In this document: in pieces, positions 687-37,974 of the stretch
Position numbering within the stretch: position 1 is the stretch's first letter
Layout of the letters: the number at the start of each line of letters is the position of its first letter
NCBI GenBank assembly: GCA_018816985.1
Contig: JAHIVA010000003.1
Location: forward strand, 1 to 49,859
DNA length: 49,859 bases
Direction: 5' to 3'
DNA from: Patescibacteria group bacterium
GTDB taxonomy: Bacteria; Patescibacteriota; Minisyncoccia; Phycocordibacterales; UBA9973
The notes under the pieces: generated by a model
Told to the model about the DNA's origin: nothing
Database searches by the model: none
The model's input: only the letters and a program-made list of their open reading frames with translations
Made by a program: the position numbers and the translations under genes

Positions 687-1352
687 CTACTCTAGTTCTT
701 CTTTTTCTTCTTTTAACATTTTTGAACCACTACTTTTAACAAAATCATGATATTCGTTTTTATCTTTGAATTGTTCAAGAACAATATCTAGGGCGAGAAG
801 TTTACCCCAACGATTTTCATTTACAAAATCCTGATAGCTTGAATACGTATATTTATTTTCTTTATTAGCCCACACAGCAATCTCTCTTGGATTTCTGTGA
901 ATATAAGCAGAAACATGGAGAAGTTGAGTGTTGTCTTTTATGTGTACTGCTTTATAAGGTCCCTGGAAAAGATGCCCAGATTTTTGATATTTTGTGTTGT
1001 AATATTTTGTATAGCCATTTAATATTCTTTGCATATACTGAGCAATGCCACCTTCTTTTTCTTCCTTAAGAATTAAATGAAAATGATTTTGCATTAAACA
1101 AAAGGAAACGAGTTCGACATAACAATCTTTGACTATTTTGTTTATAATTTCTTTATCAATGTTCAACACCGAGGGTTGAACAAGTCCCTTGGACAATCTA
1201 TTGATATTTGGAAAGGTAACAGGAGATTGAAAATAAAGAATAATAAAAAGAAAACGAAACCAATCATTGGTATCATGAAAAATAACTTGCTTTCTTGTAC
1301 CACGATTTAAAACATGATAATACTCTCCAGGGGCTATTTTTATATTTCTCAT
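687..1352 (-). mobile_element. REP-associated tyrosine transposase (Y1_Tnp/RAYT, IS200-like HUH)
   Basis: PGEYYHVLNRGT...FCLMQNHFHLIL...YTKYYNTKYQKSGHLFQGPYKAVHI: HUH motif (HFH) and Y1 region, flanked by inverted repeats. Confidence 0.88.
1161..1181. repeat. 21-nt inverted repeat (copy B), inside the RAYT coding sequence
   Basis: gttcaacaccgagggttgaac, same 7-bp arms as the flanking copies. Confidence 0.8.
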
Positions 1353-27927: not shown

Positions 27928-28761
27928 TTACATTACTAAAAATACCAAACCCATAACAATAAAAATAAATGAAGTAATTTTAATTAAAATATGCTTTTCA
28001 TGAAAAACTTTACTACCTGAAATAATTGACCACAATAGAGAAGAAGCTCTTTTGCCACTAGTAATTATAGAAGCAGGAGCATAAACATAAGCAATGCTTA
28101 TTAACACAGAACCAAATCCATTAGAAAATGAATGTACTAAAAAATCTTTTCTTAAAAGATAAGACAAGGGATTCTGTTTGAATTTCCACATAGACATAAT
28201 AAATAAAAAAATTAATAAAAAAACAGAAGTGATAATTTGTTGAGCCGCAACAGAATTATAGTAAGTAATACAATATTTATAAATAGAAATTGTAGCTACA
28301 GCATTAATGGTAGAAAATATAACATAACCAATTCCTTTCTTATTAATACCATGGTTGGTAAGTAAAATAATCAAACCTAAAACTGTTACAAAAATCCCAA
28401 TTAAATTAAAAGTGCTTATTTCATAACCTAAAACCTTATCAACTAAAAGTAAAAGTGGAATTGTCCCAATCATTAGAAATCCTAAAGTACTACGATCTGC
28501 TTTGACTATTGCATGCAGAGAAGAATAAGTTTGGGCTATTTCTAAAATTATTAATAAACAAAAAATTGGAATAGAGGCAGGATTAAATATAAAATCATTT
28601 TTTACGAGAGCAAAAATAATAAATATAATTAAAAGCCAAAACATATTCAAAAAACCAAAAGTATAAATATTTTCCTTATTATGTAAAATTTCCCACTTCC
28701 CAAAAGAAGAGGATATCTCATCAAAAAAAGTTCCAATAGTGGCTAAAATTACACCAATCAT
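27928..28761 (-). CDS. EamA/DMT-family transporter
   Basis: 277 aa with about 10 hydrophobic segments in EamA arrangement. Confidence 0.75.
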   Translation of the reverse strand: MIGVILATIGTFFDEISSSFGKWEILHNKENIYTFGFLNMFWLLIIFIIFALVKNDFIFNPASIPIFCLLIILEIAQTYSSLHAIVKADRSTLGFLMIGTIPLLLLVDKVLGYEISTFNLIGIFVTVLGLIILLTNHGINKKGIGYVIFSTINAVATISIYKYCITYYNSVAAQQIITSVFLLIFLFIMSMWKFKQNPLSYLLRKDFLVHSFSNGFGSVLISIAYVYAPASIITSGKRASSLLWSIISGSKVFHEKHILIKITSFIFIVMGLVFLVM

Positions 28762-30232: not shown

Positions 30233-31483
30233 ATGGTGCAATTTAAAAATAAAACTTTTATCGGTGCCTTGGCGGTCGTGGTGGCCGCTTTGTTTTGGAG
30301 CTTAGATGGGACTTTTTTGCGTCCGCATCTTTCATCTGTTTCCCCTACCCTAGTGGTATTTTTAGAACATAGCTTAGGATTCATTATTCTCTGGCCATTT
30401 TTATTTATTTATCGAGCAGAATTAAAAAAGATTACCAAAAAACAATGGGGGACGATTTTTTGGGTGGCTTTATTCGGCGGAGCGTTGGGTACTACTTTTT
30501 TCACTAAAGCACTATTTTTAACCGGTTTTGTGGATGTCTCAGTGGTTATTCTTTTGCAAAAGTTTCAACCGATTTTTGCTATCTTATTATCGGCTATTAT
30601 TTTAAAAGAACGCTTCCCTCTTAAATTTTATATCTATGCCACTTTGGCTTTAATTGGCGGATATTTTGTAACCTTCAAAGACCCAAGTTCCATAAATTTT
30701 GGTAGCGCTACATTTATGATAGCCGTTTTTTCTTTACTAGCTGCTTTCTCTTGGGGGTCATCAACTACTTTTGGAAAATATTCTTTAAAAAATATTAACT
30801 ACGGCTTGCTTTCTGCTCTACGGTTTGGTTTTACTGTACTCATTATGTTGATTCCGGCCATAAGATATTTTTCAACCTTGTCGTCAATTGAATCAAGTGT
30901 CTGGAAAACTTTAATTATCATAGTCTTCACTTCTGGGGCTATGGCTATGTATTTTTATTATTATGGTTTAAAAAAAATTCCAGCTTCACTGGCAACTTTA
31001 TGCGAATTGGCTTGGCCAGTCTCGGCAGTTATTTTTGATTATTTTTTCAATCACAATATCCTATCATCCACTCAAATTATTGGCGCAGTCGTTTTGATTA
31101 TAACGGTTTCTTTAGCCACTCGTCTGAATAAAACAAAAATCATCAGTGGAGTAGTTTTAGCTGGTAAAAATAATAGTGAAAAAACAGGCGCCAGAACGGC
31201 AAACTTAGACATTTCTTTAGCTAAAAACCTTGCCAAGGGACTCTACTCCTGTAAGGTTGATTTGAACGGTATAGTTTACCGAGGACTTTTATATTATGGA
31301 TTTAACTCACTAATTAATAAAGATTCTCTAGAAGTTCATCTTCTCGAATTTAATGGAAATCTTTATGGTAAAAATATTACCGCTGTCACGGAGAGATACT
31401 TGCGTTTTCCCAAGAAATTCAAAAGTGTAGAAAAATTAAGCAAACAAATTAAAAAAGATTTAGCTCAATCGTTTAACGAGTAA
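30233..31483 (+). CDS. EamA-family permease fused to C-terminal flavokinase-like (riboflavin kinase) domain
   Basis: About 10 TM segments, then from nt ~31136: IISGVVLAGKNNSEKTGARTANLDISLAKNLAKGLYSCKVDLNGIVYRGLLYYGF...LEVHLLEFNGNLYGKNITAVTERYLRFPKKFKSVEKLSKQIKKDLAQ. Confidence 0.8.
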   Translation: MVQFKNKTFIGALAVVVAALFWSLDGTFLRPHLSSVSPTLVVFLEHSLGFIILWPFLFIYRAELKKITKKQWGTIFWVALFGGALGTTFFTKALFLTGFVDVSVVILLQKFQPIFAILLSAIILKERFPLKFYIYATLALIGGYFVTFKDPSSINFGSATFMIAVFSLLAAFSWGSSTTFGKYSLKNINYGLLSALRFGFTVLIMLIPAIRYFSTLSSIESSVWKTLIIIVFTSGAMAMYFYYYGLKKIPASLATLCELAWPVSAVIFDYFFNHNILSSTQIIGAVVLIITVSLATRLNKTKIISGVVLAGKNNSEKTGARTANLDISLAKNLAKGLYSCKVDLNGIVYRGLLYYGFNSLINKDSLEVHLLEFNGNLYGKNITAVTERYLRFPKKFKSVEKLSKQIKKDLAQSFNE

Positions 31484-31485
31484 AT

Positions 31486-32826
31486 TTATTCTGACAGTCT
31501 GCTATCTATACGCGTCATGTCTCTCGGAAATGAAGTAGCTTCTTTAACATTTGGAAGTTCAAGCATTCTAGCAGTGAAACGCTCCAGTCCGGTAGATGAC
31601 CCCCCGTGAGGAGGCATACCATATTTGAAAGCCTGAAGATAATATGAAAATTTGTTAGGATCCATTCCCCTCTCTTTTATTTTAGCCACAAGCATATCGT
31701 AATTATGAATTCGTTGCGCCCCGCTATTTATCTCTAATCCCCGAAAAAGCAAATCAAAACCCCTAGAATAGGGTGCTTCTTTTGGGTCTTCATATGTATA
31801 AAAGGCTCGCTTTTTTGTTGGATATCTTGTAATAAATACGAAATCTGAACCCTTTTCTTTTTTGGCCCATTCACAAATATTACGTTCATGTTCGGGATCC
31901 ATATCTGGAGCATGTTCAACACCAAGAATATCGTGTACTTCTTTCAGTGTTAGAATAGGAATTTCATTAGGTAGAAGCGGTAAGGTTGTATTAAAATGAG
32001 AAAATATGTCAGAGTGTTTTTCTTTCACTATCTGAACGACATCGCGAATAACTTGCTCTAAGACTGCCATAGGTTCTCGCTCATTTTCAATAAACCCCAT
32101 TTCAAAATCAATACAGGTTGCTTCGCTTAAATGACGAGTGGTAGCGCTTTTCTCAGCTCTAAAAATTTTTGCCACCGTGAAAGCGCGTTCAAACGGACCA
32201 ACCATAATTTGCTTATAAAATTGTGGACTAGTCGCCAAAAACGCCGTATGGTCATTAAAATAATCTACTTTAAATGCGGCTGCTCCCCCTTCCGCATCTC
32301 CTCCCACAAGCGCTGGGGCAATAAATTCTGTAAAACCTTGTTGCTGTAAAGAATTTCTATAAGCGTCAAGAATTGATGCCTGCATTTTAAAAATATCTTT
32401 GGCTCGTTCTGTTCGTAACTTGAATGGTAAATAATCCAAATATGTATCAAGATTAACTTCGGTATCAAGGTCAAATGGCAAATCTTGAGCTTCAGACAAA
32501 ACTTCGATACCTGTCACCTCTAACTCCACTCCCCCATTCAATACTCCCACTTTTATATTTTTCTCTGGACGATTGTTTACTAAACCAGTAATTTTTAAAA
32601 CCCATTCTGAGCGAATTTCTTTTGCCTTTTCAATAACTTCTGCTCGAGAGGGTAAAGCTACGCATTGCACTTTCCCAGTCACATCTCTCATATCAAAAAA
32701 AACCATCTTCCCCTGGTCACGTCTGACATCTACCCATCCAGCAATAATAATTTCTTTTTGACCTGAGCTCGTCGAATGGTTGCCTATATTATCTTTTAAA
32801 TCTTTTATATAAATTCTATTTTGCAT
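31486..32826 (-). CDS. aspS: Aspartyl-tRNA synthetase, short archaeal/AspRS2-like form
   Basis: FRAEKSATTRHLSEATCIDFEMGF, YSRGFDLLFRGLEINSGAQR, GLERFTARML; 446 aa, shorter than the GAD-containing bacterial type. Confidence 0.9.
   Translation of the reverse strand: MQNRIYIKDLKDNIGNHSTSSGQKEIIIAGWVDVRRDQGKMVFFDMRDVTGKVQCVALPSRAEVIEKAKEIRSEWVLKITGLVNNRPEKNIKVGVLNGGVELEVTGIEVLSEAQDLPFDLDTEVNLDTYLDYLPFKLRTERAKDIFKMQASILDAYRNSLQQQGFTEFIAPALVGGDAEGGAAAFKVDYFNDHTAFLATSPQFYKQIMVGPFERAFTVAKIFRAEKSATTRHLSEATCIDFEMGFIENEREPMAVLEQVIRDVVQIVKEKHSDIFSHFNTTLPLLPNEIPILTLKEVHDILGVEHAPDMDPEHERNICEWAKKEKGSDFVFITRYPTKKRAFYTYEDPKEAPYSRGFDLLFRGLEINSGAQRIHNYDMLVAKIKERGMDPNKFSYYLQAFKYGMPPHGGSSTGLERFTARMLELPNVKEATSFPRDMTRIDSRLSE
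32760..32779. repeat. Interspersed element in aspS N-terminus (core tgagctcgtcgaa)
   Basis: Encodes HSTSSGQ; matches the pepA element. Confidence 0.55.
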
Positions 32827-37338: not shown

Positions 37339-37974
37339 ATGGCATTAAGAAAACAAGTTTTCGCTCCAGGTGAATTTTATCATTTATATAATCGCGGTAC
37401 TGAAAAAAGAATAATCTTTTTAGATGAATATGACTATCGTCACTTTTTGTTTTTAATGTATATTTGCAACTCAGAAAAAAGCATCACATTAAGAAATGTT
37501 GGTGAATTTTTTGACCGAGGAGAAACTATCGTTGATATTGGAATCTTTTGTTTAATGCCAAATCATTTTCATATTCTTGCTTATGAAAAAATAGAAAATG
37601 GCATTTCTACATACATGCGTAAATTATTGACTGGATACTCCATGTATTTCAATAAAAAATACAAAAGAACCGGAAAATTGTATGAAGGGGTTTTTAAATC
37701 AATTCACGCAAACAAAGACACATATTTTAAATATCTTTATTCATACGTACATCTAAATCCGGCAAAAATAATAGATAAAAATTGGAGAGAAAACAACAAC
37801 AGAAATTCAGCAAGCTTATTAAAATATGTTTTTTCTTACCCATACTCAAGTCTAAAAGAATATAAAGATAAAAAATTTAGAATCGTAAACCCCTTGCCGT
37901 TTCCTGCTTATTTCAAAAATCTAATTGATCACAAAAAAGAACTTTTGGAGTGGCTTAGTTTTGATGATGCATAG
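37339..37974 (+). mobile_element. Second REP-associated tyrosine transposase (Y1/RAYT)
   Basis: PGEFYHLYNRGTEKRIIF...FCLMPNHFHILAYEK...YSMYFNKKYKRTGKLYEGVFKSIHA. Confidence 0.9.

What the first reader, a model, noticed from the sequence alone, without database searches (positions are those of the whole stretch)
30233..31483. EamA permease fused to a flavokinase domain: candidate one-protein riboflavin uptake and trapping system
Seen: a single uninterrupted ORF with about 10 TM segments (EamA type), then about 115 aa matching the flavokinase pattern: TGARTAN (cf. GFPTAN), KGLYSCKV, YRGLLYYGF, LEVHLLEF.GNLYGK, RFPKKFKSVEKLSKQIKKD. The TAN nucleotide/Mg motif and the catalytic-type Glu in LEVHL are kept. 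Established: RibN riboflavin transporters belong to the EamA/DMT superfamily and flavokinase makes FMN. Inference: import and phosphorylation are coupled to trap scavenged riboflavin as FMN. I know of no described permease-flavokinase fusion.
Basis: partly seen in the sequence, partly recalled or inferred. Interest (0 to 1): 0.8.

Follow-up and report, generated by a model that had tools for sequence, protein, structure and literature searches.

The report
Vitamin B2 importer fused to kinase
A tiny-genome bacterium that apparently cannot make vitamin B2 carries one protein that is most likely both the door that lets the vitamin in and the enzyme that traps it as the cofactor FMN; the two parts are known separately, but I found no description of them joined.

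Summary
ORF 30233-31483 (416 aa) is one open frame with two EamA repeats (10 TM segments) and a C-terminal riboflavin kinase (RFK) domain about 60 bits over Pfam's cut-off. The fusion recurs at the same length in about a dozen independently assembled Nomurabacteria and Magasanikbacteria genomes. Both halves are under purifying selection (dN/dS 0.03-0.11). It is the genome's only flavokinase; RibH and RibA were not found.

The permease is ImpX-like rather than RibN-like: 41-42% identical over 98% of the Fusobacterium ImpX ortholog, and F. nucleatum ImpX rescues an E. coli riboflavin auxotroph. Separate patescibacterial orthologs lie beside standalone RFK genes, six of them directly behind FMN riboswitches. 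Across 105 RFK-bearing genomes this permease and RibH replace each other (36 permease only, 53 RibH only, 5 both). A second, independent fusion has the opposite order (RFK-EamA), and other lineages fuse RFK to a RibXY-like ABC ATPase.

Best reading: a one-protein riboflavin importer and FMN trap. Transport and kinase activity are inferred, not measured. Fusion orthologs carry GARTAN-type motifs in place of GFPTAN, so kinase activity needs testing. Channelling between the halves is unproven. New variant of a known kind.

The parts
30233..31483 (+). EamA(ImpX-like)-riboflavin kinase fusion gene, 416 aa
   Evidence: single ORF; PF00892 x2 + PF01687; conserved fusion clade
30233..31129 (+). ImpX-like permease half, residues 1-299, 10 TM segments, N-in/C-in by positive-inside count
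   Evidence: 41% identity over 296 columns to Fusobacterium ImpX ortholog; topology
31139..31468 (+). riboflavin kinase domain, residues 303-412; T322, N324, G336, E367, R391 kept; GARTAN in place of GFPTAN
   Evidence: PF01687; residue conservation; fold match to RFKs in the PDB
31486..32826 (-). aspS (aspartyl-tRNA synthetase; named from its sequence, no HMM run), convergent neighbour. In relatives the order is aspS-RFK-EamA, so the flavin locus sits at the same place
   Evidence: cluster c1

Best explanation
The protein is a bifunctional flavin-acquisition enzyme of a riboflavin-auxotrophic patescibacterium. The N-terminal 10-TM ImpX-type EamA domain lets riboflavin cross the membrane. The C-terminal riboflavin kinase, held about 8 residues below TM10 on the cytoplasmic side, phosphorylates it with ATP to FMN, which should not leave by the same route, so net uptake is pulled forward. 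FMN then goes to FMN enzymes, and to FAD through a separate nucleotidyltransferase (candidate at G000 contig 83). Shown by sequence: the fusion, its conservation, purifying selection on both halves, retained catalytic residues, ImpX homology, absence of RibH/RibA hits, riboswitches upstream of separate orthologs, and replacement of riboflavin synthesis genes across genomes. Inferred: riboflavin as substrate of this protein, inward direction, kinase turnover, and trapping.
For: Domains well above curated cut-offs. Only flavokinase in the genome; RibH and RibA not found. EamA half 41% identical over 296 columns to the Fusobacterium ImpX ortholog, which has an FMN riboswitch and is flanked by the published impX cloning-primer sites with 3 mismatches each; F. 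nucleatum ImpX complements E. coli delta-ribB (PMC4418817). Queried with ImpX, the window's genome gives one hit, this protein. Separate orthologs lie next to standalone RFK genes; six have an FMN riboswitch directly upstream. Of 60 relatives, the permease occurs in 20, all RFK+; all 27 RFK+ genomes have permease (18), RibH (7) or both (2); none of the 33 RFK- genomes has either. Phylum sample: 25 of 26 permease-bearing genomes are RFK+ (Fisher p 2.5e-14); within RFK+ the permease is in 22 of 33 without RibH but 3 of 49 with it (p 4.9e-9). Independent-pairs test on the RFK tree: about 9 of 10 pairs swap in opposite directions, median p 0.004. Independent reverse-order fusion RFK-EamA in L183. 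dN/dS 0.03-0.11 in both halves.
Against: No biochemical data. The signature GFPTAN is GARTAN, GAKTAN or GMRTAN in the fusion clade: the Pro before Thr is Arg or Lys, and the Phe is Ala or Met; its effect on catalysis is unknown. No FMN riboswitch or other Rfam hit lies in the window itself. The AlphaFold model is poor (mean pLDDT 48), so domain packing cannot be judged. Absence calls rest on a 136-contig assembly with 8% estimated contamination; RibB, RibD and RibE were not searched genome-wide. The 120-bit line for calling the permease was set after seeing the scores.
Confidence: 0.85

Rival explanations
1. The permease half imports riboflavin, but the C-terminal domain is no longer a kinase. 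It acts as a flavin/nucleotide sensor or gate on the transporter, and FMN is obtained in some other way.
For: GFPTAN is changed to GARTAN/GAKTAN/GMRTAN throughout the fusion clade, while Pro is kept in 94% of other patescibacterial RFKs.
Against: T322, N324, G336, E367 and R391 are kept in every fusion row with sequence there. dN/dS is at most about 0.1 in the RFK half. There is no other flavokinase in the genome, while a Pyr_redox_2 protein, a probable flavoprotein, is encoded.
Confidence: 0.08
2. The EamA half exports flavins (FMN or riboflavin made inside the cell), with RFK supplying the FMN to be exported.
For: Many EamA/DMT proteins are exporters; NCBIfam's nearest models are generic amine/amino-acid and drug exporters, far below cut-off.
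Against: The host has no RibH or RibA hit and so has no evident flavin to export. Separate orthologs sit behind FMN riboswitches, which normally shut genes off when FMN is plentiful. The permease is found where RibH is missing. The homologue ImpX supports uptake.
Confidence: 0.03
3. The EamA half carries another metabolite and the fusion to RFK is incidental.
For: EamA is a large superfamily with varied substrates.
Against: Two independent fusions in opposite orders, gene linkage in several families, FMN riboswitches and the mutual replacement with RibH would all have to be coincidence.
Confidence: 0.03
4. The ORF is an assembly or frameshift artefact joining two neighbouring genes.
For: The assembly is fragmented, and RFK and EamA are neighbours in relatives.
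Against: In the neighbours the order is RFK then EamA, so read-through would give the opposite order. The fusion is present at full length in about a dozen separate assemblies at 63-88% identity.
Confidence: 0.01

Closest known systems
ImpX riboflavin transporter (Fusobacterium nucleatum; PMC4418817)
   Same: EamA-type permease; the window half is 41-42% identical over 98% of an ImpX ortholog, above the 38%/80% line that paper first used for orthologs. Separate patescibacterial orthologs share the FMN riboswitch.
   Different: ImpX is a stand-alone transporter; here it carries a C-terminal riboflavin kinase, and the window gene has no riboswitch. That survey found ImpX only in species that make riboflavin; here it occurs mainly where RibH is missing.
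RibF, bifunctional riboflavin kinase/FMN adenylyltransferase (e.g. T. maritima TM379, 1mrz; C. ammoniagenes FADS)
   Same: Same RFK domain family and kept catalytic residues.
   Different: No N-terminal FAD synthetase domain; a permease takes its place. GARTAN instead of GFPTAN.
RibN riboflavin transporter (EamA/DMT)
   Same: Same superfamily and described function (riboflavin entry).
   Different: Not compared directly; the paper reports RibN only in Proteobacteria (PMC4418817).
RibXY ABC riboflavin transporter (Chloroflexus; PMC4418817)
   Same: Patescibacterial loci L103, L116 and L117 hold an NMT1-type binding protein and an ABC permease (both annotated by Pfam for L103 only) beside an ABC ATPase fused to RFK; L116 and L117 have an FMN riboswitch: the same transport-plus-kinase idea with other parts.
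   Different: A different, ATP-driven transporter class; not in the window.
Importer plus kinase trapping pairs such as PnuC/NadR and LicB/LicA (recalled from general knowledge, not tested)
   Same: A membrane importer paired with a kinase that traps the substrate.
   Different: Separate polypeptides and other substrates.

Membership tests
ImpX riboflavin transporter family | EamA-type 10-TM permease | tested here: met
   PF00892 twice; 10 TM segments
ImpX riboflavin transporter family | >38% identity over at least 80% of the ImpX prototype (first criterion in PMC4418817) | tested here: met
   41-42% over 98% of the F. vincentii ImpX ortholog. The exact prototype, F. nucleatum ATCC 23726, was not in hand; its cloning-primer sites match the F. 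vincentii locus
ImpX riboflavin transporter family | FMN riboswitch upstream (common in the family, not required of every member) | tested here: inconclusive
   Absent in the window; present directly upstream of six separate patescibacterial orthologs and of the Fusobacterium gene
ImpX riboflavin transporter family | riboflavin uptake | not testable with these tools
   needs complementation or uptake assay
Riboflavin kinase (PF01687) | score over the family's curated cut-off | tested here: met
   79-83 bits against 19.6
Riboflavin kinase (PF01687) | catalytic Thr/Asn of PTAN and the general-base Glu | tested here: met
   T322, N324, E367 kept in all fusion rows with sequence there
Riboflavin kinase (PF01687) | full GFPTAN signature | tested here: inconclusive
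   GARTAN, GAKTAN or GMRTAN in the fusion clade; Pro is also absent in about 6% of other rows, so it is not strictly required of members
Riboflavin kinase (PF01687) | ATP-dependent FMN formation | not testable with these tools
   enzyme assay needed
RibF (bifunctional RFK/FAD synthetase) | N-terminal FAD synthetase domain PF06574 on the same chain | tested here: not met
   no PF06574 in the ORF; RibF equivalog models stay far below cut-off
RibN riboflavin transporter family | closer to RibN than to other EamA groups | not tested
   no RibN sequence in hand; ImpX match found instead

The most novel reading that the evidence does not exclude
The fusion is a true vectorial device: riboflavin passes from the permease directly into the kinase site, so ATP-driven phosphorylation powers accumulation against a gradient. 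That would be a single-polypeptide group-translocation system for a vitamin, with the GARTAN change being part of the adaptation.
Probability: 0.15. Interest if true: 0.8.

Novelty: new variant of a known kind. Interest (0 to 1): 0.6.

Why it matters
Patescibacteria are thought to live largely on nutrients from neighbours, but which transporter brings in which vitamin is mostly unknown. This fusion, together with the linked standalone genes, names a riboflavin route for many of them and gives a single gene that can be tested in E. coli. The repeated swap between making riboflavin (RibH) and importing it, beside the same kinase gene, is a clear case of losing synthesis and gaining uptake. Independent fusions of the kinase to a permease in both orders, and to an ABC ATPase, suggest that placing the kinase at the transporter is selected.

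Tried and rejected
Frameshift or mis-assembly: rejected by independent assemblies. Flavin exporter: disfavoured by missing RibH/RibA and by riboswitch context. RibN assignment: not tested, replaced by ImpX after a plasmid-collection search hit a Fusobacterium replicon. AlphaFold on the 11-row fusion alignment gave a low-confidence model (mean pLDDT 48). Foldseek still matched the kinase half to riboflavin kinases, but nothing can be said on packing of the two halves. PDB sequence search with the TM half found nothing. Literature searches found no described permease-flavokinase fusion in the open-access library; subscription papers are not covered. NCBIfam could not settle whether the small cytidylyltransferase-like protein makes FAD.

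Full report
Observation. The ORF at 30233-31483 is a single open frame of 416 codons. Pfam finds two EamA repeats (126 bits, cut-off 28.2) and a Flavokinase domain at residues 303-412 (79 bits, cut-off 19.6; 83 bits for the C-terminal piece alone). RibF equivalog models align mainly to the C-terminal part and stay far below their whole-protein cut-offs, so this is the kinase domain without the FAD synthetase domain. Hydropathy shows ten TM segments, the last ending near residue 294. Even loops hold 13 Lys/Arg and odd loops 3, so both ends, and the kinase, are on the inside; the linker is about 8 residues. By sequence the kinase half matches T. maritima RibF and human riboflavin kinase in the PDB, and the predicted fold, though of low confidence overall, matches riboflavin kinases.

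Not an artefact. The same fusion was found in Nomurabacteria assemblies at 82-88% identity and in Magasanikbacteria at 63-67%. Within the genus, 8 of 80 genomes hold it at full length; in two more, pieces end at contig edges. On a tree of the EamA halves the EamA-RFK fusions form one clade (100/99 support), and their kinase halves do too. Nei-Gojobori dN/dS is 0.03-0.11 for both halves where it can be estimated. T322, N324, G336, E367 and R391 are kept in all fusion rows with sequence there. The usual GFPTAN reads GARTAN, or GAKTAN/GMRTAN in Magasanikbacteria, throughout the clade. That is a consistent, clade-wide departure whose effect on activity is unknown.

The host. The window lies in a 1.02 Mb patescibacterial genome (G000, 136 contigs, 100% completeness, 8% contamination by the tool's figures). 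The fusion is its only flavokinase match. Neither lumazine synthase RibH nor GTP cyclohydrolase II RibA was found. RibB, RibD and RibE were not searched genome-wide. One Pyr_redox_2 protein shows a likely demand for FAD. No canonical FAD synthetase was found: two weak PF06574 matches are 154-156 aa cytidylyltransferase-like proteins, one of them a candidate for the FMN to FAD step by inference only.

Context in relatives. In 60 relatives, 27 have a flavokinase, mostly a stand-alone protein of about 110-130 aa. In the same genus the common order is aspS, RFK, then an EamA gene in the same direction, often overlapping; the window's fusion also abuts aspS, with the halves in the opposite order. 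Other relatives have RFK followed by riboflavin synthase RibE and RibH. All 27 RFK genomes have the permease (18), RibH (7) or both (2); none of the 33 without RFK has either. In a sample of 287 genomes across the phylum, 82 have RFK, 52 have RibH and 26 have a strong match to the permease half, 25 of these with RFK. Among RFK genomes the permease is in 22 of 33 without RibH and 3 of 49 with RibH (Fisher p 4.9e-9). Genomes are related, so I repeated this with independent pairs on the RFK tree: about 9 of 10 supported pairs swap in opposite directions, median p 0.004. The overlaps were counted by hand from the tables, and the 120-bit line for a strong match was chosen after seeing the scores.

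Riboswitches. Six separate permease genes (L096, L101, L104, L108, L111, L113) have an FMN riboswitch directly upstream; in five of them it lies between RFK and the permease. The window itself has no Rfam match.

Which permease. A tblastn search of annotated plasmids hit a Fusobacterium vincentii replicon. The ORF there is 41% identical over 296 columns, has an FMN riboswitch upstream at 118 bits, and is flanked by sites matching the published F. nucleatum impX cloning primers with 3 mismatches each. It is thus most likely the impX ortholog. F. nucleatum ImpX rescues an E. coli delta-ribB strain (PMC4418817), and that paper's first ortholog line was 38% identity over 80%. Queried with this ImpX, the window's genome returns one match, the fusion, and of all permeases in the tree the fusion clade is nearest to ImpX (long branch).

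Other fusions. G042 (L183) has RFK-EamA in the reverse order, which on the tree arose separately. L103 and L116 (and L117 by the same layout) fuse an ABC ATPase to RFK beside an ABC permease and an NMT1-type binding protein, with FMN riboswitches in L116 and L117. RFK is also fused to RibE, a cytidylyltransferase-like domain, Nudix and 5-formyltetrahydrofolate cyclo-ligase. The kinase therefore joins repeatedly to flavin supply, by synthesis or by import.

Mechanism. The best-supported reading is uptake of riboflavin by the ImpX half and immediate conversion to FMN by the kinase below it, which traps the vitamin and keeps the inward gradient. Import and kinase activity follow from homology, residue conservation and genome context; neither was measured. 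Tethering should raise local capture, but channelling or true energetic coupling is a further claim without evidence here.

Novelty. Both parts are known. I found no description of a permease-flavokinase fusion in the open-access library, which does not cover subscription journals. I rate it a new variant of a known kind, with the phylum-wide exchange of synthesis for import as the wider result.

Noticed in passing
L103, L116, L117 (G116, G098, G078): ABC ATPase fused to riboflavin kinase beside an ABC permease and an NMT1-type binding protein; FMN riboswitch upstream in L116 and L117: a RibXY-like importer with a built-in kinase.
   Followed up: partly
L183:4439-5776 (G042): Riboflavin kinase-EamA fusion in the reverse order, independent of the window's fusion.
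   Followed up: yes
G009, G011, G041, G045, G058: RibH present (with RibE-like gene beside it in the loci seen) but no RibA match in the genome: a partial riboflavin pathway whose precursor source is unclear.
   Followed up: no
L101, L123, L098, L102, L088, L142: Further riboflavin kinase fusions: to a cytidylyltransferase-like domain, Nudix, 5-formyltetrahydrofolate cyclo-ligase and riboflavin synthase.
   Followed up: partly
L189:1003-1467 (G000 contig 83): 154-aa cytidylyltransferase-like protein resembling the domain found next to or fused with RFK elsewhere; candidate FAD synthase.
   Followed up: partly
window 30233-31483, residues 319-324: GFPTAN signature changed to GARTAN, GAKTAN or GMRTAN throughout the fusion clade.
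   Followed up: partly
window 27928-28761 (-): Second DMT-like membrane protein near the fusion; blastp shows no real similarity to the ImpX group.
   Followed up: partly
window 687-1352 (-) and 37339-37974 (+): Two ORFs that look like Y1 (REP-type) transposases, read by eye only.
   Followed up: no
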